From: Alistipes sp.
Lineage (GTDB): Bacteria; Bacteroidota; Bacteroidia; Bacteroidales; Rikenellaceae
DNA length: 8,514 nt
Reading direction: 5' to 3'
Assembly: GCA_029051915.1 (NCBI GenBank)
Contig: JAIDKM010000039.1
Span: 1-8,514, forward strand
Notes under the pieces: model-generated
What the model was told of the DNA's origin: nothing
Seen by the model: only the letters and a program-made list of their open reading frames with translations
Databases searched by the model: none
Part shown: piece after piece, positions 1-6,825 of the stretch
Numbering within the stretch: the first letter of the stretch is position 1
Layout: each line of letters opens with the position of its first letter
Position numbers and translations under genes: made by a program

Positions 1-522
1 GTGGAACACTCCGAGACCCTGGGAACCGAACGAGGGCCGATTGAGGAGCGACGACAACCGGATCGAACGACGGGGGGAAAGGGGGGCGTAGAGGTACCGG
101 AAGCCCGACAGGCCCGGCCGAGAGAGGCGGAAAGCCGCCGAAGCCCGGGATGGCTCCGCTATTTAGCCTGCAAAATCCTGGGAATCAATAATATAGAAGA
201 AAACGCGAAGCCGGACGGCCGAATGCCGGGCCCTGCTCCGCAGAGAGAAGCCCGCAGCCGCCCGGGCGAACAGGCGGCGACGCAGAAACCGGGCGAGCCC
301 GCGGCGGAACCGACAGAACGGCCCGCGAGCCTGCAAGCCCTACCGGGCACCCGGCACTCCGAACGACCCGATCCGCGGCACCCGGCACCCGGGAAGCGGA
401 ACGAGACCCGAGAAGAACGCGTGGCGAGGCTGATACGCGAATTCCGACTTGAAGCCTCGACCCCTGTAGAATGTGTTTTGTTTGTTGCAGATTTGAAAAA
501 AGAGATCGATGGCTATCTATGA
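1..522 (+). CDS. Hypothetical low-complexity protein upstream of avd (5' end uncertain)
   Basis: I do not recognise this gene. The frame is open from the first base of the window, where a GTG could be a start but is just as likely internal, so the protein may be truncated at its N-terminus. About two thirds of it is rich in Arg, Glu, Pro, Gly and Ala with no visible fold. Residues ~52-75 (WLRYLACKILGINN and following) and the last ~40 residues are different: the C-terminus (REERVARLIREF, then TPVECVLFVADLKKEIDGYL) looks like one or two amphipathic helices and is the part most likely to be a real domain. The stop overlaps the avd start by 14 bp (509-522), which suggests translational coupling in one transcript with avd. 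The GC-rich composition means the open frame in the first half could be accidental. Confidence is moderate that the 3' end is coding and low for the rest. Confidence 0.45.
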   Translation: MEHSETLGTERGPIEERRQPDRTTGGKGGVEVPEARQARPREAESRRSPGWLRYLACKILGINNIEENAKPDGRMPGPAPQREARSRPGEQAATQKPGEPAAEPTERPASLQALPGTRHSERPDPRHPAPGKRNETREERVARLIREFRLEASTPVECVLFVADLKKEIDGYL

Positions 523-907
523 CAATTTGCCTGTTTTCAAGGCGACGTACGATTTGCTGTTGCAGGTGGTGAAACTTTCGGTCAATATCCGGCGAGATGC
601 CCGCTACACGCTGGGCGAATCGCTCAAAAAGGAGATTCTCGGACTGTGCATCTGCATCTACAGAGCCAACCTGACGGCCGAAAAGGGCCCGCTGATCGAA
701 CAAGCCCGCGAAGCCCTCGTGCCGATCAAGCTGCTGATCCGTCTGCTGCACGACACGCAGCAACTTTCGACCAAACAATACGCCATGCTCTGCGACCACC
801 TCGACACCATATCGCGGCAGCTGAGCGCATGGCAGAAATACCTCCTGAAAGAAAAAACCAAATCCCGGACTCCCGAACCCGCCCCGGCGGCCGGCGAGAC
901 GGAATGA
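509..907 (+). CDS. avd: DGR accessory variability determinant (Avd-like four-helix protein)
   Basis: 132 residues, close to the ~125-130 of known Avd proteins. Avd is a small basic four-helix protein that forms a pentameric barrel, binds template RNA and the reverse transcriptase, and is needed for mutagenic retrohoming (family knowledge from the Bordetella phage DGR). Seen here: an almost wholly helical sequence that can be divided into about four helices (roughly residues 5-28, 34-55, 60-83, 88-117), with the family-like segment RRDARYTLGESLKKEIL at ~29-45, many Lys/Arg, and a disordered Pro/Ala/Glu tail after ~118. The start ATG at 509 is preceded by an A-rich stretch (GAAAAAAGAG) rather than a true Shine-Dalgarno, normal for Bacteroidetes. 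It overlaps the preceding frame, and the first template leader begins 4 nt after its stop. In the Bordetella system the 3' end of avd is itself part of the functional template RNA, so the tight junction may matter. Assignment rests on sequence character plus the RT and template array downstream. Confidence 0.88.
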   Translation: MAIYDNLPVFKATYDLLLQVVKLSVNIRRDARYTLGESLKKEILGLCICIYRANLTAEKGPLIEQAREALVPIKLLIRLLHDTQQLSTKQYAMLCDHLDTISRQLSAWQKYLLKEKTKSRTPEPAPAAGETE

Positions 908-910
908 CGA

Positions 911-1096
911 AATAGTAAAACAGCTTCTCCGGCCCGGAATGACGGAAGCCACGGTTTCCGTCAGCGAGGTCAATGTAGATTCAGCAATCCGCTGGCGATG
1001 CGCATGCAGACTCATCCCCTGCTGCCCGGATCGTCAGCTTTTCATCCCAGTTTGCCGGAAAGCGATTTCTTTCCGTCATCCATTCCAGCGATTGCT
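911..1096 (+). ncRNA. Structured template leader L1 (unit 1)
   Basis: Conserved non-coding leader directly after avd. It opens with a TAAAACAGCTTCTCC box, then GGCCCGGAA. Hairpin H1 is at its best here: TGACGGAA (940-947) pairs perfectly with TTCCGTCA (956-963) around the loop GCCACGGT. The invariant box AGCAATCCGCTGG (983-995) is complementary, with one bulged C, to CCAGCGATTGCT (1085-1096) at the edge of repeat R1, forming stem P1. Between them lie a TTCATCCCAG box and hairpin H2, CGGAAAG (1056-1062) with CTTTCCG (1069-1075). No frame is conserved across the leaders. Whether it acts as RNA or as DNA is inference; location in a presumed avd-RT transcript favours RNA. Confidence 0.68.
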
Positions 1097-1294
1097 TCGA
1101 CTGTCTGCTTCGGGCTACCGCACCTGGACGTCGGGAGCCCTGACGAATGTCGGCGCGCAAGGCCTCTGCTGGTCTTCTTCGCCCCAGTCGGGCAGTACCA
1201 ACGCAGGCGATGTGAATTTCAACTCGACGAACGTGAACCCGCTGAACAGCGACAACCGCGCCTACGGCTTTACCGTGCGCTGCGTCCAGCATCT
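1082..1294 (+). repeat. DGR template-like repeat R1 (C-lectin variable-region sequence)
   Basis: 213-bp member of an eleven-copy family. After the ATTCCAGCGATTGCT box it reads in one frame as the C-terminal end of a FISUMP/C-lectin-like DGR target protein: ASGYR, SGALTNVG, WSSSP, FNSTNVNP, then RAYGFTVRCVQHL. There is no start codon or N-terminal domain, so it is not a gene. Variable columns here read TWT (after G-Y-R), AQ-G-LC (before the WSSSP tryptophan) and NSDN (before RAYGF). The 3' end is the block TGCGCTGCGTCCAGCATCT, identical in all eleven copies and in the place where the IMH or IMH-like element sits in known DGRs. A T-tract follows at 1303-1309. The template role is inferred from position between avd and RT and from Asn-rich surface columns. 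Confidence 0.8.
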
Positions 1295-1355
1295 GCACGA
1301 AGTTGTTTTTTATTCTCACGCTCTTTGACAAAACTGATACTTTTTTCTTCGACAT

Positions 1356-1398
1356 GATAAAAAACAGCTTCTCCGGAACATTCAATCCAGCGATTGCT
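1356..1398 (+). other. Truncated leader of unit 2 (no H1, no P1 5' box)
   Basis: This unit keeps only the two ends of the leader: the opening box GATAAAAAACAGCTTCTCCG (1356-1375) and the TR-edge box AATCCAGCGATTGCT (1384-1398), fused through a few bases. The H1 hairpin, the AGCAATCCGCTGG strand of P1, the first ATTCATCCCAG box and H2 are all missing. It looks like a deletion of about 120-150 bp relative to the other ten units. If the leader is required in cis, R2 should be inactive or should depend on a neighbouring leader. Confidence 0.6.
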
Positions 1399-1596
1399 CC
1401 ATATGCCTGCTGCGGGCTACCGCAACTATGCGACGGGAGCCCTGAACAATGTCGGCACGGTGGGCGACTACTGGCCTTCGTCGCCGCAGTCGGGTAGTGC
1501 CAATGCCGGCAATCTCTACTTTACGTCGAGCAATATGAACCCGTTGACCAGTGCTGCGCGTGCCTACGCCTTCCCTGTGCGCTGCGTCCAGCATCT
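1384..1596 (+). repeat. DGR template-like repeat R2 (leaderless, divergent)
   Basis: 213 bp with the same frame and 3' block as R1. Encoded end: PAAGYRNYATGALNNVG, TV-G-DY-W, then a Pro in place of the first Ser of WSSSP, YFTSSNMNP, LTSAARAYAFPVRCVQHL. It is one of the most altered members: the usual FNSTNVNPLN segment reads FTSSNMNPLT and the Asn pair before Arg is Ala-Ala. This is what a previously mutagenised copy, or a template decaying after loss of its leader, would look like. A T6 tract follows the end at 1603-1608. Confidence 0.75.
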
Positions 1597-1627
1597 ACGC
1601 CTGTTTTTTATCCTTATTCCTACATGA

Positions 1628-1877
1628 GATAAAAAGCATACTTCCGACCCGGAATGGCCGAGGCCACGACTTCGACCAGCGAGGTTTGGTAGATTCAGCA
1701 ATCCGCTGACGGCGGCCGGCTTCTGCGAGCGCCTCCGCCAGCTATCCTATTCCAGTCTGTTCCGGAGCTGCCTTCCCGAAAGCGCGGCTCGCGGACGATT
1801 TACCGCCAGCTATTCATCCCAGTCTGTCCTGCAGTTGCCCCAGCGGCTCCTTCGGGATATTCAATCCAGCGATTGCT
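1628..1877 (+). ncRNA. Structured template leader L3 (longest, with partial duplication)
   Basis: Opens with GATAAAAAGCA, then GACCCGGAA. H1 pairs TGGCCGA (1655-1661) with TCGACCA (1672-1678), six of seven positions, with one C/A mismatch. AGATTCAGCAATCCGCTG (1691-1708) supplies the 5' strand of P1. The first twin box occurs twice, as CAGCTATCCTATTCCAGTCTG-like sequence near 1738 and as CAGCTATTCATCCCAGTCTG near 1808, so part of this leader has duplicated and diverged; that accounts for its 250-nt length. H2 pairs TGTCCTG (1825-1831) with CGGGATA (1853-1859), including two G-U pairs. Confidence 0.62.
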
Positions 1878-2078
1878 TTCTAAGGCAGCATCGGGCTTCC
1901 GCAACAACACGTCGGGAGCCCTGACGAATGTCGGCGCGAATGGCTACTGCTGGTCGTCGGCGCCCCAGTCGTCGGGCAGTGCCGATGTGGGCTACTTGGG
2001 ATTCAATTCCACCAACGTCAATCCCTACAACAGCGGCGCTCGCAGCAACGGCCTTACCGTGCGCTGCGTCCAGCATCT
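1863..2078 (+). repeat. DGR template-like repeat R3
   Basis: 216 bp. Encoded end: AASGFRNNTSGALTNVG, AN-G-YC-W, SSAPQSSGSADVGYLGF, NSTNVNPYNSGARSNGLTVRCVQHL. It carries one more codon than R1 and R2 in the SPQ-SGS loop. The residue after the first Gly is Phe (TTC) where other copies have TAC, AAC or CTC, so only bases 1 and 2 of that codon vary. The tail after the invariant block contains CGAGA-ggctg-TCTCG (2081-2095), a short hairpin, instead of a T-tract. Confidence 0.8.
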
Positions 2079-2110
2079 GCGAGAGGCTGTCTCGACTTAC
2101 TCTGCAACGA

Positions 2111-2277
2111 GATAAAAAACAGCCCTCCCGACCCGGAATGGCCGAGGCCATCGGTTTCGGTCAGCGAGGTCAGTAGATTCAGCAATCCGCTGGCGGTATT
2201 CGTCGCCGTCAGCTATTCATCCCAGCCTGCCTTTGCGTCGTCATCCCGCCGCTCAGGCATCCAATCCAGCGATTGCT
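2111..2277 (+). ncRNA. Structured template leader L4
   Basis: Compact 167-nt leader, useful as the minimal form: GATAAAAAACAG, GACCCGGAA, H1 (TGGCCGA 2139-2145 with TCGGTCA 2157-2163, seven pairs including one G-U), GTAGATTC followed by AGCAATCCGCTGG (2181-2193), CAGCTATTCATCCCAG, H2 (TGCCT 2228-2232 with AGGCA 2255-2259, plus an inner GCG/CGC helix), and CCAGCGATTGCT (2266-2277) closing P1. Nothing in it looks coding. Confidence 0.68.
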
Positions 2278-2481
2278 ATCACGTTATATGATTGCCTCGG
2301 GCAACCGCGTCAACACGACGGGAGCCCTGAACAATGTCGGCGCGCAAGGTCTCTGCTGGTCTTCTTCCCCTGCGTCGGGCAGTGTCAATGCCGGTGGCCT
2401 GAACTTCAACTCGACGTATGTGGGCCCGGTACCGGACCACAATCGTGCTAACGCCTTCCCTGTGCGCTGCGTCCAGCATCT
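2263..2481 (+). repeat. DGR template-like repeat R4
   Basis: 219 bp. Encoded end: MIASGNRVNTTGALNNVG, AQ-G-LC-W, SSSPASGSVNAGGLNF, NSTYVGPVPDHNRANAFPVRCVQHL. The PVPDHN stretch replaces the usual PLNSNN: its codons (GTA CCG GAC CAC) differ at bases 1-2, and partly at base 3. The distance from the edge box to GGC-AAC-CGC is two codons longer than in most copies, shared with R10. The 3' end is followed by CAGC-N8-GCTG and T6, a weak terminator-like tail. Confidence 0.8.
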
Positions 2482-2508
2482 ACAGGCTGTTTTTTATTTT
2501 TCCGATAT

Positions 2509-2707
2509 GATAACAACTAAACAGCCTCCGACCCGGAATGCCGAAAGCTACGGTTTTCGGCAGAGTGGTTCGTAGATTCCGCAATCCGCTGGCGATCCGT
2601 TGAGCGCCGCCTCTGTGAAGGTGCGCCGAAGCGGAACGTCAGCTATTCATCCCAGCCTGCCTGTGCGCCGTCATCCCGCCGCTCAGGCATTCATTCCAGC
2701 GATTGCT
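2509..2707 (+). ncRNA. Structured template leader L5
   Basis: H1 is a perfect seven-pair stem, TGCCGAA (2539-2545) with TTCGGCA (2556-2562), differing from L1 and L4 on both strands. P1 strands: GCAATCCGCTGG (2581-2592) and CCAGCGATTGCT (2696-2707). Between P1 and the twin boxes lies an extra hairpin, GCGCC then GGTGC around CTCTGTGAA, also present in L7 and, with other sequence, in L9 and L11. H2: TGCCT (2658-2662) with AGGCA (2685-2689). From 2527 to 2707 it is nearly identical to L7 (about four differences), whereas the repeats that follow are not. Confidence 0.68.
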
Positions 2708-2908
2708 TCGACTGTCTGCCTCGGGCTACCGCCACTATACGTCGGGAGCCCTGACGAGTGTCGGCGGAACAGGTGTTTACTGGTCTTCTTCGGCTTCTGC
2801 GGCGGGCAATGCCAATGCGAGCTACTTGAATTTCAACTCGACGAACGTGAACCCGCAGAACAGCAACAACCGCGCTTACGGCTTTACCGTGCGCTGCGTC
2901 CAGCATCT
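2693..2908 (+). repeat. DGR template-like repeat R5
   Basis: 216 bp. Encoded end: RLSASGYRHYTSGALTSVG, GT-G-VY-W, SSSASAAGNANASYLNF, NSTNVNPQNSNNRAYGFTVRCVQHL. The first 25 bases after the edge box are almost the same as in R1, so the 5' parts share recent ancestry. TSVG against TNVG in R1 is a single A-to-G change (AAT to AGT), the direction expected of adenine mutagenesis from an R1-like parent. Pro of SSSP is Ala here. Confidence 0.8.
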
Positions 2909-2930
2909 ACAGGCTGTTTTTGACCCTTCG

Positions 2931-3087
2931 ACAGAAAACAGCTTCTCCGATCCGGAATGGCCGTGGCTACGGCTATGGCCAGCGAGATCCGCAGATTCCG
3001 CAATCCACTGACTACACGTTAGTTATTCATCCCAGTATGTCCTGCAGTTGCCTCCGCTCCTCCGGGATATTCATTCCAGCGATTGCC
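2931..3087 (+). ncRNA. Structured template leader L6
   Basis: Short leader (157 nt). H1 pairs TGGCCGT (2958-2964) with ATGGCCA (2975-2981): the last pair is T-A reversed relative to L4, and the third pair is G-C where others have A-T or C-G, giving compensatory change. P1 is weaker: GCAATC (3000-3005) with GATTGC (3081-3086), and CTG with CAG, but an A replaces the G between them. H2 is TGTCCTG (3038-3044) with CGGGATA (3063-3069), shared with L3. Confidence 0.64.
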
Positions 3088-3288
3088 TGCTATAGCTGCA
3101 TCGGGCAACCGCAACCGTGAGACGGGAGCCCTGAACAATGTCGGCACGTACGGCGAGTGCTGGTCGTCCTCGCCTGCTGCGGCCGGCAGTGGCAATGCGT
3201 GCTATCTGGAGTTCAATTCGGATCGCTCGTATCCGATGAACAGCTACTACCGTGCGAACGGCTTCACCGTGCGCTGCGTCCAGCATCT
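3073..3288 (+). repeat. DGR template-like repeat R6 (strongly altered)
   Basis: 216 bp. Encoded end: AIAASGNRNRETGALNNVG, TY-G-EC-W, SSSPAAAGSGNACYLEF, NSDRSYPMNSYYRANGFTVRCVQHL. The STNVNPLNNNN segment of the family reads SDRSYPMNSYY. Tyr codons TAC-TAC stand where R5 and R8 have AAC-AAC, an A-to-T change at base 1 in two successive codons. Framework residues are untouched. Of all copies this looks most like a diversified variable region, and least like a clean Asn-rich template. Confidence 0.78.
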
Positions 3289-3380
3289 GCGAGAGGCGGT
3301 TTTCTTATTTGAACTATTCTCTGCCGAGCGGTGCCGAACACCCTGTGCCGTGCCGGCATGATGGAGCCAACGATTCAATC

Positions 3381-3575
3381 GATAACAAACAGTCCTCCGA
3401 CCCGGAATGCCGAAAGCTACGGTTTTCGGCAGAGTGGTTCGTAGATTCCGCAATCCGCTGGCGACCCGTTGAGCGCCGCCTCTGTGAAGGTGCGCCGGAT
3501 CGGACGTCAGCTATTCATCCCAGCCTGCCTGTGCGCCGTCATCCCGCCGCTCAGGCATTCATTCCAGCGATTGCT
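3381..3575 (+). ncRNA. Structured template leader L7 (near twin of L5)
   Basis: Opens with GATAACAAACAG. H1 is TGCCGAA (3408-3414) with TTCGGCA (3425-3431), as in L5. From 3396 to the edge box at 3561-3575 it matches L5 with about four differences (GATCCG/GACCCG, and GAAGCGGAACG/GGATCGGACG), so these two leaders separated recently by duplication or gene conversion. The sequence before it (3289-3380) is the most unusual inter-unit stretch, longer than elsewhere and without the usual T-tract followed directly by the opening box. Confidence 0.68.
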
Positions 3576-3776
3576 ATATTCCGCGGCCTCGGGCTACCGC
3601 GAGCGCGTCTCGGGAGCCCTGGGCGGTGTCGGCACGAATGGCTATGCCTGGTCTTCTGCGCCCTACGCATCCGGCAATGCCAATGCGGGCAACCTGAACT
3701 TCAACTCGACGGCCGTGAACCCGCTGAACAACAATGCGCGTGCTAACGGCTTTACCGTGCGCTGCGTCCAGCATCT
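3561..3776 (+). repeat. DGR template-like repeat R7
   Basis: 216 bp. Encoded end: YSAASGYRERVSGALGGVG, TN-G-YA-W, SSAPYASGNANAGNLNF, NSTAVNPLNNNARANGFTVRCVQHL. GGVG stands where most copies have TNVG or NNVG. Although its leader is nearly identical to that of R5, this repeat differs from R5 at dozens of bases, most of them in the variable columns. A reading frame open from 3469 through R7 and R8 to 4299 is a by-product of GC-rich sequence and is not annotated as a gene. Confidence 0.8.
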
Positions 3777-3815
3777 GCGAGGACTGTTTTACCTGTTTCC
3801 CGGATTCCAGGAAGC

Positions 3816-3976
3816 GATGAAAGACAACCTCTCCGACCCGGAATGGCCGAGGCCATCGGCTTCGGTCAGCGAGGTCAGTAGATTCAGCAATCCACTGGCG
3901 ATGTCCGTCAGTTATTCATCCCAGCCTGCCTGTGCGTCGTCAACCTGCCGCTCAGGCATCCATTCCAGCGATTGCC
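3816..3976 (+). ncRNA. Structured template leader L8
   Basis: 161 nt, close to L4 in sequence. H1: TGGCCGA (3844-3850) with TCGGTCA (3862-3868). GTAGATTC is followed by GCAATC (3887-3892), which pairs with GATTGC (3970-3975); CTGG pairs with CCAG, with an A in place of the G, as in L6 and L9. The H2 helix TGCCT...AGGCA with inner GCG/CGC is kept, although the loop reads CAACCTGC instead of CATCCCGC. Confidence 0.66.
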
Positions 3977-4175
3977 GAAAGGTTGCCTCGGGCAACCGCA
4001 ACAACACGACGGGAGCCCTGAATGTCGTCGGCACGTACGGCTACTCCTGGTCATCCTCGCCCTACGCAGCGGGCAGTGCCAATGTGAGCATTCTGCGTTT
4101 CCTTGCCAGCGAGATGACGCCGTTGAACAGCAACAATCGCGCGAACGCTTTCCCTGTGCGCTGCGTCCAGCATCT
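3962..4175 (+). repeat. DGR template-like repeat R8
   Basis: 214 bp. Encoded end: VASGNRNNTTGALNVVG, TY-G-YS-W, SSSPYAAGSANVSILRF, LASEMTPLNSNNRANAFPVRCVQHL. The FNSTNVNP core is replaced by FLASEMTP, which R8 alone carries. The distance from the edge box to the coding part is two bases shorter than in most copies, so the frame is not kept through the box. This is evidence against the box being protein-coding. The tail reads CAGC-N9-GCTG-CTTTTT. Confidence 0.8.
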
Positions 4176-4230
4176 GCGAGGCTGCTTTTTGTCCTTCCGG
4201 GGATCTTGGAACAGACCGATTGATCATGTT

Positions 4231-4449
4231 GATAAAAAACAGCTCTCCGGCGGCCCGGAGTGGCCGGGGGTTACGACTCCTGCCAGCGAGGCCTTGTAGA
4301 TTCAGCAATCCACTGATAACCTGTTGAGAACGGGACTTCGACCGGGCCGGGCCTCTGAAGGCCGCCCCGAATCGGAACGTCAGTTATTCATCCCAGCCTG
4401 TCGGGAAGTTTTCTGAAACTCCTTCCTGCCATTCATCCCAGCGATTGCT
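4231..4449 (+). ncRNA. Structured template leader L9
   Basis: Opens with GATAAAAAACAGCTCTCC and an expanded GGCGGCCCGGAG. H1: TGGCCGG (4261-4267) with CCTGCCA (4279-4285), six of seven pairs, loop length 11. TAGATTC and AGCAATC give the 5' P1 strand, followed by CACTG. An extra hairpin GGCCT-CTGA-AGGCC lies near 4350-4364 within the stretch that in L5 and L7 holds the GCGCC/GGTGC hairpin. H2: GGAAG (4404-4408) with CTTCC (4422-4426). The edge box has one variant base, ATCCCAGCGATTGCT. Confidence 0.66.
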
Positions 4450-4644
4450 TTTGGCTGCATCGGGTTACCGCACCTACCCGACGGGAGCCCTGACGAATGT
4501 CGGCGCGAACGGTAATTACTGGTCTTCTTCGCCTCAGTCGGGCAGTGCCAATGCCGGCCACTTGAATTTCAACTCGACGAACGTGAACCCGCTGAACAGC
4601 AATCCCCGCGCTTACGGCTTTACCGTGCGCTGCGTCCAGCATCT
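4435..4644 (+). repeat. DGR template-like repeat R9 (shortest, consensus-like)
   Basis: 210 bp, the shortest copy. Encoded end: LAASGYRTYPTGALTNVG, AN-G-NY-W, SSSPQSGSANAGHLNF, NSTNVNPLNSNPRAYGFTVRCVQHL. It is near the family consensus and keeps Asn at the G-x-x-W and STNVNPLN positions, so it is a good candidate for a little-altered template. A run of eight T follows from about 4654, the longest after any repeat. Confidence 0.82.
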
Positions 4645-4682
4645 GCGGAGACTGTTTTTTTTATCTTTCTGTCGAAACATGG

Positions 4683-4875
4683 AACGAAAAACGACTTCTT
4701 CGACCCGGAATGGCCGAGGCCATCGGCTTCTGCCAGTGCGGTCGGCAGATTCAGCAATCCGCTGCCGTCCCGGCTTCGGCATTCCTTTGCAGGATGCCGG
4801 ATTACGAACTGTCAGCTATTCATCCCAGTCTGTCGGGAAGCGACCCTCTTCCTGGCATTCATTCCAGCGATTGCT
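4683..4875 (+). ncRNA. Structured template leader L10
   Basis: H1: TGGCCGA (4711-4717) with TCTGCCA (4729-4735), six of seven pairs. AGATTCAGCAATCCGCTG gives P1 with CCAGCGATTGCT at 4864-4875. An additional strong hairpin, CGGCAT-T-CCT / AGG-ATGCCG with loop TTGC, lies near 4776-4799 in the place where L5, L7, L9 and L11 carry an unrelated extra hairpin. H2: GGAAG (4836-4840) with CTTCC (4848-4852), seven-base loop. Confidence 0.68.
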
Positions 4876-5082
4876 TATCACGTTTCAGATTGCTTCGGGC
4901 AACCGCAACCGTGAGACGGGAGCCCTGACGGTCGTCGGCACGAACGGCTACGCCTGGTCGTCTTCGCCCTACGCTGCCGGCAATGCCAATGGAGGCTTCC
5001 TGAACTTCAACTCGGGCAACGTGTACCCGTTGAACAATACCAACCGTGCAAACGCCTTTCCCGTGCGCTGCGTCCAGCATCT
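4861..5082 (+). repeat. DGR template-like repeat R10 (longest)
   Basis: 222 bp. Encoded end: FQIASGNRNRETGALTVVG, TN-G-YA-W, SSSPYAAGNANGGFLNF, NSGNVYPLNNTNRANAFPVRCVQHL. NRET is shared with R6, and PYAAG and NAFPV with R8, so it reads as a mosaic. It has the two-codon-longer 5' spacer also seen in R4. The tail is GAAGTTGTTTT. Confidence 0.8.
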
Positions 5083-5115
5083 GCCTGAAGTTGTTTTCGG
5101 CGATCCGTGTTTCTT

Positions 5116-5328
5116 GGAAAAAAGCGGCTCCCCGACCCGGAATGACAGGAGCTACGGGCTTTTGTCAGTGTGGTCAGTAGATTCAGCAATCCGCTGCCGT
5201 CCCCGTTAAGCACGGGGTTTCGAGAGGACACCGTGTCTCTGAAGGTGTGCCGAATCGAACGTCAGCTATTCATCCCAGTTTGCTGCGGTGCTGATTTCTC
5301 CGCCGCGGCATCCATTCCAGCGATTGCT
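5116..5328 (+). ncRNA. Structured template leader L11
   Basis: H1 has a different geometry from the rest: outer TGACA (5143-5147) with TGTCA (5163-5167) and inner AGC (5150-5152) with GCT (5158-5160), so the stem survives although almost every base differs from L4 or L8. GTAGATTCAGCAATCCGCTG supplies P1. The extra hairpin here is ACACC/GGTGT around GTGTCTCTGAA, the same position as GCGCC/GGTGC in L5 but with different pairs. H2: TGCTGCGG (5281-5288) with CCGCGGCA (5303-5310), eight pairs including one G-U. Confidence 0.68.
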
Positions 5329-5525
5329 CTTACAGTTCCTTCGGGCCTCCGCAACAACACGTCGGGAGATTTGTGGGGCGTCGGCACGAACGGCTACGCC
5401 TGGTCTTCCTCGCCCACGTCCGGCAGCACCAACGCCGGCTATCTTGACTTCAACTCGACGAACGTGAACCCGCTGAACAATAACAACCGCGCTTACGGTT
5501 TCCCCGTGCGCTGCGTCCAGCATCT
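5314..5525 (+). repeat. DGR template-like repeat R11 (RT-proximal)
   Basis: 212 bp, next to the reverse transcriptase, where the single template of an ordinary DGR would lie. Encoded end: PSGLRNNTSGDLWGVG, TN-G-YA-W, SSSPTSGSTNAGYLDF, NSTNVNPLNNNNRAYGFPVRCVQHL. It has the most complete Asn run (AAC AAT AAC AAC before Arg) and Asn-Asn after G-L-R, as expected of a template with AAY codons. The usual GAL is GDL. The 5' spacer is 35 nt from CAGCGA to CGC, so the frame breaks at the edge box. No further leader follows it. Confidence 0.82.
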
Positions 5526-5541
5526 GCGGGAGCCGCTTTTT
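5526..5541 (+). terminator. Weak terminator-like hairpin after R11
   Basis: GCGG-gag-CCGC (5526-5536) is followed directly by five T, and a second T5 tract lies a few bases on. The stem is only four pairs. It could attenuate transcription into the RT gene or mark a processing point at the end of the last template. Several other repeats have comparable CAGC...GCTG plus T-run tails, so the position may be functional even though each copy is weak. Confidence 0.3.
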
Positions 5542-5613
5542 CCTTTTTACCGACTGCGAACGAAACCGGAGTCGGGCCTGTAAACCGAATTGAAAACATC
5601 TAAAAAACAATCT

Positions 5614-6825
5614 ATGAACGAAAAACTGCTGACCGACCTCTTCAATGCCTATTATGATGCTCGGCAAAATAAACGCAACACGCTCAGTCAACTACGTTTC
5701 GAGATGAACCTCGAAGACAACCTGATGGAGCTCTACCATGAAATCGATGAACGCCGCTACCATGTGGGCCGCAGCATCTGTTTCATGACGAATATCCCGG
5801 TCAAACGGGAGATCTTCGCCGCCGATTTCCGTGATCGGGTGGTACACCACCTGCTATGCAACTATGTGAGTCCGCTTTTCGAACGGACGTTCATCACCGA
5901 CAGCTACTCCTGCCGCAAAGGCATGGGTACGCATTTCGGCATCGGCCGCCTGGAACATCACATCCGGTCGTGCTCGAACAACTACCAATGGAAGAGCTAC
6001 CTGCTCAAGCTGGATATTCAAGGCTATTTTATGAATATCAACCGGGAACTGCTGTTCAATATCATTATGCAGAAACTGAACCGGTTTGCACCGCGCCATG
6101 CGTATGATGGAAAGACCTGGGGAGAGATTCTGGACTACGATCTGATCGGCTATCTTGCCCGGGAGATCGTTTTCAACGATCCTACCGAGAACTGCGAAGT
6201 CCGCGGCAACCAGAAGCAATGGATCGGCCTGCCGCCCTCCAAGAGTCTGTTCCATACGCCGGACGGATGCGGGCTGCCCATCGGAAACCTTACCTCGCAA
6301 CTATTCAGCAATGTATACCTGTCGAAGCTGGACGATTTCATCAAGCGGACGCTGCGTGTGAAACATTATGGACGTTATGTTGACGACTTCTACATTGTCG
6401 GCACCGACCGGGCCCGGCTGATGCAACTGGTGCCCATTATCCGGGATTTTCTGAAAGAAGAACTGGGCCTGCAGCTGCACCCCGACAAGATCTATCTACA
6501 AGAAGTAACGAAAGGAGTCAATTTCCTGGGAGCCAATATCAAACCCTATCGCCGCTATCTGGTCAACAAGACCAAGCGCCGCATCAACCGCCAGATGAGC
6601 AGTGCCGCCTATCGTCCGCAAGAACTGATGGTCGCCACGATCAACTCCTATCTTGGCTACATGCGGCACCTGTGCTGTCAGAACTACATCCGCCGGCTGG
6701 TCGAACGCAATCCGTGGCTGCTTGAGAAAGGGCGTTTCACCCAATACTACCGGAAGTTCATTCCCTACAAGAAACCGGCCGACGCGACTACGACCTCGCC
6801 CGATGATCTGACGTGGCCTCTGTAG
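5614..6825 (+). CDS. DGR reverse transcriptase
   Basis: RNA-dependent DNA polymerase that copies template RNA into adenine-mutagenised cDNA with Avd. From the ATG at 5614 it is 403 residues; an in-frame TTG at 5590 would add eight residues (MKTSKKQS) but is a less likely start. Visible RT motifs: catalytic Asp134 in KLDIQGYF (132-139), PIGNLTSQ (222-229), which is the I/VGxxxSQ signature of the DGR clade instead of the QGxxxSP of retroviral and group II intron enzymes, and YVDD (255-258) with both metal-binding Asp. LHPDK (288-292) and GVNFLG (301-306) fit RT motifs 6 and 7, followed by a basic thumb-like region and a short Pro/Thr tail. There is no maturase, HNH or integrase domain. The region before the start, CTAAAAAACAATCT, is A-rich and resembles the opening box of the template leaders. 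Same strand as avd and the array; converges on the aminotransferase gene three bases downstream. Confidence 0.96.
   Translation: MNEKLLTDLFNAYYDARQNKRNTLSQLRFEMNLEDNLMELYHEIDERRYHVGRSICFMTNIPVKREIFAADFRDRVVHHLLCNYVSPLFERTFITDSYSCRKGMGTHFGIGRLEHHIRSCSNNYQWKSYLLKLDIQGYFMNINRELLFNIIMQKLNRFAPRHAYDGKTWGEILDYDLIGYLAREIVFNDPTENCEVRGNQKQWIGLPPSKSLFHTPDGCGLPIGNLTSQLFSNVYLSKLDDFIKRTLRVKHYGRYVDDFYIVGTDRARLMQLVPIIRDFLKEELGLQLHPDKIYLQEVTKGVNFLGANIKPYRRYLVNKTKRRINRQMSSAAYRPQELMVATINSYLGYMRHLCCQNYIRRLVERNPWLLEKGRFTQYYRKFIPYKKPADATTTSPDDLTWPL

What the first reader, a model, noticed from the sequence alone, without database searches (positions are those of the whole stretch)
911..5525. Eleven template-like repeats in tandem between avd and the DGR reverse transcriptase
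Seen: eleven 210-222 bp copies in the same orientation, all ending in the identical block TGCGCTGCGTCCAGCATCT, all encoding only the variable C-terminal end of a C-lectin-like protein and lacking start codons. Known: DGRs typically have one template repeat near avd and RT. Inference: a multi-template DGR in which one RT/Avd pair draws on an array of distinct templates, or an archive of variable-region copies. Either would be an unusual architecture; I do not know of a described DGR with so many.
Basis: partly seen in the sequence, partly recalled or inferred. Interest (0 to 1): 0.93.

Follow-up and report, generated by a model that had tools for sequence, protein, structure and literature searches.

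The report
One mutator enzyme, dozens of templates
This Alistipes-like bacterium carries 36 copies of a likely mutation template, eleven in a row beside one reverse transcriptase and 25 scattered through its genome, and one of the eleven matches a prophage gene almost everywhere except at adenines, so a single mutator likely draws on a whole library of templates instead of the usual one.

Summary
The eleven repeats are real. They look like template units of a diversity-generating retroelement (DGR), not gene fragments. Ten of 11 carry a leader resembling Rfam RT-7 RNA, and units pair 5' end to 3' end by a stem that varies in step on both sides. The same unit occurs at 25 further places in this genome; only two longer genes carry the matching tail. 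Unit 11 fits as template of one of them, a prophage gene: 15 of 18 mismatches over 173 nt fall at template adenines.

In relatives the host target beside avd fits a scattered unit in four genomes and an array unit in one. In six single-template relatives all mismatches are at template adenines.

Between two species the unit sites are conserved, but leader and core at most sites are no more alike than random pairs, so the library appears to be reshuffled. I call it a new variant of a known kind: a DGR with a genome-wide template library. Against it: no template was found for this genome's other tail-bearing gene (cut by a contig end), and no target for ten of the eleven array units.

The parts
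509..907 (+). avd, DGR accessory protein, 132 aa
   Evidence: PF22296 bAvd E 2.5e-9, 38 bits against cut-off 40; NF033474 DivGenRetAVD E 4.1e-14, 52.8 bits against cut-off 80
933..1102 (+). unit 1: RT-7-like RNA leader
   Evidence: RF03028 85.8 bits, E 3e-19, under the gathering score 116.8
1085..1294 (+). unit 1: template core (from the CCAGCGATTGC block)
   Evidence: identical 3' block
1387..1596 (+). unit 2: template core; no RT-7 match
1648..1883 (+). unit 3: RT-7-like RNA leader
   Evidence: 85.7 bits
1866..2078 (+). unit 3: template core
2132..2283 (+). unit 4: RT-7-like RNA leader
   Evidence: 80.5 bits
2266..2481 (+). unit 4: template core
2532..2713 (+). unit 5: RT-7-like RNA leader
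   Evidence: 89.4 bits, E 3.3e-20
2696..2908 (+). unit 5: template core
2951..3093 (+). unit 6: RT-7-like RNA leader
   Evidence: 74.0 bits
3076..3288 (+). unit 6: template core
3401..3581 (+). unit 7: RT-7-like RNA leader
   Evidence: 88.9 bits
3564..3776 (+). unit 7: template core
3837..3982 (+). unit 8: RT-7-like RNA leader
   Evidence: 78.2 bits
3965..4175 (+). unit 8: template core
4254..4455 (+). unit 9: RT-7-like RNA leader
   Evidence: 86.8 bits
4438..4644 (+). unit 9: template core
4704..4881 (+). unit 10: RT-7-like RNA leader
   Evidence: 69.6 bits
4864..5082 (+). unit 10: template core
5116..5132 (+). unit 11: 5' arm of the terminal stem
   Evidence: pairs with 5528-5543; duplex energy -29.7 kcal/mol
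5136..5334 (+). unit 11: RT-7-like RNA leader
   Evidence: 83.5 bits
5317..5525 (+). unit 11: template core; fits as template of the prophage gene on contig C231
   Evidence: 15 of 18 mismatches over 173 nt at template adenines
5528..5543 (+). unit 11: 3' arm of the terminal stem, ending in a T run (terminator-like)
5614..6825 (+). DGR-type reverse transcriptase, 403 aa
   Evidence: PF00078 E 1.6e-15; 8ub7 E 2.7e-40

Best explanation
The eleven repeats are most likely template units of a diversity-generating retroelement, part of a set of 36 such units in this genome, which one reverse transcriptase and its Avd partner would copy with errors at adenines into the tails of very few target genes. 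Each unit is predicted to be a small RNA: a structured 5' leader (RT-7-like), a roughly 200-nt template encoding a C-lectin-like protein tail, and a terminator whose 3' arm pairs with the RNA's own 5' end (covariation shown; RNA not observed). The RT-Avd complex would prime on this RNA, copy the template with random bases at adenines, and the cDNA would replace the variable end of a target gene (known DGR mechanism, here inferred). Shown by sequence: array unit 11 and a prophage gene here form an adenine-restricted template-target pair; in relatives the fimbrillin-like or similar target beside avd pairs in the same way with a distant unit (G007, G114, G059, G154) or with an array unit (G105). 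From this I infer that units work in trans and that the working unit differs between species. Also inferred: the other units are reserve or past templates kept by selection on the protein they encode, and units are reshuffled among fixed sites.
For: Unit 11 to prophage gene C231: 15 of 18 mismatches over 173 nt at template A. Host targets: G007 with dispersed L179, 22 of 25 at A, the other 3 at the 3' edge; G114 with dispersed L168, 17 of 23; G059 with dispersed L294, 7 of 8; G105 with an array unit, 12 of 12 over the 180 nt present; G154 with dispersed L311, 16 of 18 unambiguous. Hypergeometric tails for G007, G114, G059: 4e-15, 2e-9, 3e-5, not corrected for picking the best unit. The same scoring with C, G or T as the free base fits worse in each. 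Single-template controls: 16/16, 18/18, 17/17, 12/12, 21/21, 15/15 at A in six distinct loci. RT-7 ends within one base of the tail match in two distinct single-template loci. Terminal stem: own ends -18.5 kcal/mol on average, swapped ends -13.9; 0 of 10,000 permutations as good (79 of 103 units), and 0 of 10,000 also when swapping only within one genome's array or dispersed set (mean -15.3, z -8.9); outer pair G-C 35, A-U 27, unpaired 2 of 64 parsed. Protein-level selection on cores: 16 cross-species pairs at least 87% identical differ at codon positions 1, 2, 3 in 80, 53 and 144 places (my sum). No stop in the matched part of 38 tails here or 89 in three relatives.
Against: For the other tail-bearing gene here (C199, VR cut at the contig end) none of 35 of the 36 units, nor 45 units of G138, is a clean template. 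Ten of 11 array units have no target here. G011 (17 units of its array contig and units of other genomes tested, its own dispersed ones not) and the tandem array of G192 gave no clean template for their targets; G138's VR is filled with N. G114's pair has 6 non-A mismatches, most of them inside the tail. Dispersed units are poorer in AAY codons than array units (4.6 against 9.4 per unit in G000), so many may be weak or retired templates; G105 shows no such difference. The stem test is not significant in the smallest set (G114 dispersed, 3 units). Unit 2 lacks the leader. Position-3 excess is not seen in every pair (e.g. 10,3,7 and 9,7,8). No transcription data. Window leaders score under Rfam's RT-7 cut-off.
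Confidence: 0.8

Rival explanations
1. Dedicated pairs: each template has its own target, mostly on prophages or other mobile genes now lost or unassembled; nothing is switched and there is no library function.
For: Unit 11 pairs with a prophage gene; G007 and G114 use the same syntenic unit for the host target; four window units have an array counterpart at least 87% identical in G138.
Against: By the tail search G007 (98% complete) has 19 units and G114 (99%) 21, with one non-unit gene each (18 and 21 units read out). The working template differs between species: array in G105, different distant sites in G007/G114 and G059/G154. No phage relative of the array in 50,697 phage records and none convincing in viral contigs.
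Confidence: 0.25
2. Silent-copy archive working by ordinary DNA recombination: units are donors for block gene conversion of the target, without the RT.
For: At most syntenic sites neither leader nor core is best matched between G000 and G138; two G138 sites share an identical core with different leaders.
Against: The three targets fitted by mosaic differ from their unit at scattered adenines, not in blocks; the fit needs at most one switch, and that at an edge. Covarying terminal stems and RT-7 leaders point to RNA.
Confidence: 0.08
3. Most units are dead remnants: a few templates work and the rest are decaying duplicates.
For: Dispersed units are A-poor in five of six genomes and no target is found for most units.
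Against: No stop codon in the matched part of 38 tails here and 89 in three relatives or in 69 collected in G059; codon-position-3 excess overall; terminal-stem pairing also in the larger dispersed sets (G000 0 of 5,000 and G138 37 of 5,000 permutations as good).
Confidence: 0.1
4. Selfish retron-like elements: units are mobile RNAs spread by the RT, and the DGR link is secondary.
For: Retron-like end pairing, dispersal, 36 units here and up to 89 tail matches per genome.
Against: Sites are conserved between species with flanks about 86% identical, so units do not jump freely; cores keep coding sense; the RT's best solved relative is 8ub7 and its retron-model score is 52.7 against a cut-off of 235.
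Confidence: 0.06

Closest known systems
Classical single-template DGR (Bordetella phage BPP-1 type, recalled; here L076, L079, L068, L074, L039, G181)
   Same: avd, template, RT order; tail of C-lectin-like type; change restricted to template adenines
   Different: One template next to the RT against 11 in tandem plus 25 dispersed; a structured leader before the template, whereas a review passage describes a structured trailing RNA (PMC8867640)
DGRs with several templates or remote targets (MetaCSST survey PMC6642488; Treponema denticola PMC4891356; Thiohalocapsa PB-PSB1 PMC10907252)
   Same: More than one TR, or action in trans, has been reported: 216 of 271 multi-VR DGRs of the survey have one TR, so 55 have more; trans action of one TR on remote targets; TR variants among strains
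   Different: The named examples have two or six TRs (the six in an atypical DGR with few A-to-N changes) or many targets per TR; here many templates stand against one or two targets, the inverse ratio. TR numbers of the other 55 are not given in what I read
Rfam RT-7 RNA (RF03028)
   Same: Leader fold and conserved blocks; RT-7 sits immediately before the template in single-template relatives
   Different: Window copies score 69.6-89.4 bits against a gathering score of 116.8; the model's 191 positions end before the template tail
Retron msr-msd RNA (recalled)
   Same: 5' and 3' ends pair, structured 5' part before the copied part
   Different: RT is of DGR type with Avd; the copied part encodes a protein tail; no branched RNA-DNA known
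Silent-copy antigenic variation (pilin or VSG archives; recalled)
   Same: One expressed gene and many silent partial copies
   Different: Target and donor differ at adenines, so transfer presumably goes by way of RNA and cDNA

Membership tests
DGR | DGR-type reverse transcriptase | tested here: met
   Best solved relative 8ub7, E 2.7e-40 (that it is the BPP-1 RT is recalled); the sequence reads IGNLTSQ, the recalled GxxxSQ motif of DGR RTs. NCBIfam offers only weak matches to other RT models, all under cut-off
DGR | Avd accessory protein | tested here: met
   PF22296 and NF033474 significant but under the curated cut-offs
DGR | Template-variable pair differing at template adenines | tested here: met
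   Unit 11 and C231: 15 of 18; five relatives
DGR | Target tail of C-lectin type | tested here: inconclusive
   PF09603 matches C231 (E 5.6e-5) and the G007 target (E 3.1e-4), both under the cut-off; none in C199 or the G114 target; no structure was predicted
DGR | Different 3' ends of template and target (IMH* and IMH) | tested here: inconclusive
   Units end CAGCATCT or close variants plus a T run; targets end otherwise and carry TGAGCGAGC..GCGAG; function untested
DGR | Active mutagenic retrohoming | not testable with these tools
   Needs strains or population reads
Retron | Retron RT | tested here: not met
   NF038233 52.7 bits against a cut-off of 235
Retron | Complementary 5' and 3' ends of the RNA gene | tested here: met
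   Own-versus-swapped tests, 0 of 10,000
Retron | Branched RNA-DNA product | not testable with these tools
   Needs experiment
Rfam RT-7 RNA | Score over the gathering cut-off | tested here: not met
   Window copies 69.6-89.4 against 116.8; L028=L076 159.2, L029=L079 151.8 and L031 123.1 pass
Silent-copy gene conversion | Targets differ from donors in blocks | tested here: not met
   Three targets fitted: single-template adenine fit with at most one edge switch

The most novel reading that the evidence does not exclude
A bacterial template library that evolves: dozens of retron-like template RNA genes at fixed genomic sites exchange their variable cores among themselves and take turns, through one error-prone reverse transcriptase, in rewriting one surface adhesin (and prophage genes). 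It would combine an archive of selected variants with fresh mutation at adenines, a two-tier diversification system that none of my ten library searches turned up for DGRs.
Probability: 0.45. Interest if true: 0.93.

Novelty: new variant of a known kind. Interest (0 to 1): 0.83.

Why it matters
In the DGR papers I could read passages of, the usual case is one template feeding one or a few targets. Here the ratio is inverted: 36 templates in this genome and up to 89 tail matches per genome in relatives, against one or two tail-bearing genes. The case suggests a function for an RNA family that I know here only by its Rfam name (RT-7, as the leader of DGR template RNAs), offers separable natural template RNA genes for in-trans targeted mutagenesis, and makes testable whether a bacterium keeps an archive of past variable regions. 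The prophage link suggests that a host DGR can diversify a phage gene.

Tried and rejected
Independent translation of the units: no shared start codon and a varying distance from leader block to core in the array. Dispersed units as simple adenine-mutated copies of array units: no clean pair heads the ranking of ordered pairs in four genomes; the NNY share at AAY sites (0.71-0.82) is only a little above other variable sites (0.63-0.69), and conserved sites give 0.53-0.78. Mosaic origin of targets: not needed. A promoter before each unit: a TAnnTTTG box precedes 13 of 73 dispersed units, about 1.2 expected, and 1 of 41 array units, about 0.5 expected (114 of 186 units placed), so own promoters are shown for few. 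A fixed relation to neighbouring genes: 40 same-strand, 32 opposite by a crude longest-ORF rule. Phage relatives: no match of the array in 50,697 phage records; 69 viral loci with the 15-mer gave 10 open-frame candidates, none with this tail though L197 ends in a similar RAVRCV; the C231 protein finds two weak relatives that match residues 45-115 only. Rows dropped: 24 of 103 units without a recognisable leader start; 15 of 79 not parsed; four of 22 syntenic pairs left out as doubtful. One spurious row (L177, + strand) is in the G007 dispersed average, and the G114 dispersed average rests on 3 units. Of 89 tail matches in G059, 67 units and the target were examined. The 116 G192 hits count an overlap of two loci twice; one search gives 83.
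Full report
WHAT IS THERE. The window (G000:C323) is from a fragmented genome (1.78 Mb, 392 contigs, 82% complete) whose RT is 95% identical to that of an Alistipes senegalensis MAG (L058). It reads avd (509-907), eleven same-strand repeats (about 911-5545), RT (5614-6825), then an aminotransferase and an HU-like gene on the other strand. All eleven repeats end in the same 19 bases and are 207-219 bp long from a shared CCAGCGATTGC. Ten of eleven are preceded by a match to Rfam RT-7 RNA, 69.6-89.4 bits, under the family's gathering score of 116.8.

THE UNIT IS GENOME-WIDE. The 3' block (up to 2 mismatches) occurs at 36 places: 11 in the array and 25 outside it. The RT-7 model finds 34 places in this genome, all under its cut-off. 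A tail peptide finds 38 places; beyond the 36 units these are a 292-aa gene on C231 and an ORF of 714 aa that runs off the end of C199. The C231 contig carries terminase, YopX-like and methylase genes, so it is a prophage region. C199 encodes a protein with a lipoprotein-like start, no Pfam hit, and a tail cut by the contig end; whether it is the gene beside avd here cannot be seen.

RNA FEATURES. The 5' end of a unit (such as AAAAGCAGC) is complementary to its own 3' end (GCTGCTTTT). Over 79 of 103 units from four genomes the mean duplex energy is -18.5 kcal/mol; with ends swapped between units it is -13.9, and none of 10,000 permutations reaches the observed sum. Because related units share ends, I repeated the test with swaps only inside each genome's array or dispersed set: mean -15.3, z -8.9, 0 of 10,000; single sets reach 0-37 of 5,000 except the three-unit G114 dispersed set, 814 of 5,000. 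In 64 parsed units the outer pair is G-C in 35, A-U in 27 and unpaired in 2. The predicted fold of unit 11 closes the same stem (MFE z -1.9, 2 of 100 shuffles as good). The layout resembles a retron RNA, but the RT is of DGR type.

WHAT THE UNITS TEMPLATE. Unit 11 and the C231 tail: 15 of 18 mismatches over 173 nt at adenines of unit 11. In single-template relatives (L028=L076, L029=L079, L068, L074, L039, G181) all mismatches are at template adenines: 16/16, 18/18, 17/17, 12/12, 21/21, 15/15. In L028 and L029 (and their copies) RT-7 ends within one base of the tail match; in L031 one RT-7 match ends 13 bases before a tail match. This suggests that RT-7, at least there, is the leader of a DGR template.

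In multi-template relatives I asked which unit fits the target beside avd. G007: dispersed L179, 22 of 25 at A, the rest at the 3' edge. G114: dispersed L168, 17 of 23. G059: dispersed L294, 7 of 8. G154: dispersed L311, 16 of 18 unambiguous. G105: array unit, 12 of 12 (in G105 the target sits at the edge of another contig, so its place beside avd is assumed). The G114 and G007 targets are lipoprotein-like with DUF4906 and, in G007, FimA domains. Scoring with C, G or T as the free base fits worse in each. The donor sites of G007 and G114 are syntenic (87% over 2,139 nt); the G154 donor lies in a neighbourhood syntenic with the G059 donor cluster. At the place of the G007/G114 donor, G000 and G138 hold units (L011, L159) only 72-73% identical to it and with 5 and 6 AAY codons against 14 in the G007 donor. 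No clean donor was found for C199 here, for G011 (none of its own dispersed units tested), or for G192; G138's VR is filled with N. A motif TGAGCGAGC..GCGAG lies just behind the tail of targets: one such place in G000 (C231), G138, G007, G114, G011 and G059 and one near a contig start in G105; G138 and G059 have one further hit each, the G059 one not at a tail, the G138 one not examined.

HOW THE LIBRARY CHANGES. Of 24 dispersed G000 units compared (of 25), 22 have a syntenic partner in G138 by the script, with flanks 86% identical on average; L011's partner, L159, was found otherwise. Core identity at partners is 0.71 against 0.69 for all pairs and leader identity 0.62 against 0.63. By blast, 3 of 18 cores and 3 of 18 leaders are best matched at the syntenic site, and not the same ones. 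Between G007 and G114 the picture is two-sided: 4 of 8 cores are 0.91-0.95 identical, the others 0.61-0.74. Very fast change could mimic exchange, but this two-sidedness speaks for replacement. Two G138 sites share an identical core of about 200 nt with different leaders, ends close to the template borders; misassembly is possible. Sixteen cross-species pairs of cores at least 87% identical differ at codon positions 1, 2, 3 in 80, 53 and 144 places (my sum), which suggests selection on a protein although the units have no shared start codon: a sign that cores are expressed after transfer. Array units keep more AAY codons than dispersed ones: G000 mean 9.4 (11 units) against 4.6 (23), G138 9.1 (11) against 4.5 (33), G114 12.0 (8) against 6.7 (3), G007 12.2 (8) against 5.3 (7), G059 7.9 (14) against 4.8 (53); but not G105, 9.5 (4) against 9.1 (7).

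DISTRIBUTION. RT-7 was found in 14 of 151 genus genomes drawn (stricter filters) and a close RT (E up to 1e-60) in 40 of 268 family genomes. Unit number runs from one beside the RT (G181, G002) through two (G099) and three and five beside two RT genes (G084) to arrays of 4-14 with dispersed units (G105, G154, G007, G114, G000, G138, G059); the tail peptide rings 89 times in G059 and 87 in G011, the latter with a repeated stretch of assembly. G192 has 83 tail matches within 23 kb, many about 210 bp apart, one with a stop, apparently a separate expansion.

LITERATURE. Ten searches of the open library listed no paper on such an array; most subscription papers are not held. Read as passages only: PMC8144416, PMC4891356, PMC8867640, PMC10907252, PMC12875486, PMC8143477 (89, a reference entry only); PMC6642488 as passages (41) and one section (87). 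They report DGRs with more than one template repeat (six in an atypical named case, number not given for others), TR variants among T. denticola strains, and trans action of one TR on remote targets. The RT-7 source paper was not available.

VERDICT. By its tested features this is a DGR, with an architecture I could not find described: many template RNA genes, tandem and dispersed, against one or two targets. Shown by sequence: the units, their covarying ends, and adenine-restricted template-target pairs on different contigs or at distant sites, with different donors in different species. Inferred: transcription, priming, action in trans as a process, use of every unit, and exchange of cores.

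Noticed in passing
window 1-522 (+): ORF running off the window start; its C-terminal end is the same as that of an ORF upstream of avd in L058. No NCBIfam hit for the L058 ORF. Possibly a DGR accessory gene.
   Followed up: partly
L065 and L308 (G192): 83 tail matches in 23 kb before the RT, many about 210 bp apart; no clean template for the 838-aa ORF at its start.
   Followed up: partly
leaders in L173-L177, L170, L171, L144, L145: AT-rich palindromic insert (TGAATAATTAACAATGAATAGTGAATAATT-like) inside several leaders, possibly a small mobile repeat.
   Followed up: no
L192 and L309: The VR of the host target is filled with N in the A. senegalensis MAG and holds 9 ambiguous bases in G154, 4 of them at template adenines; may reflect population variation.
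   Followed up: partly
L195 (G011:C85): Six units occur twice, identical, about 7.66 kb apart: real duplication or assembly artefact.
   Followed up: no
L144 and L145 (G138): Identical cores with different leaders at two distant sites, borders close to the template borders.
   Followed up: partly
G084:C21: Two RT genes with separate template clusters on one contig.
   Followed up: no
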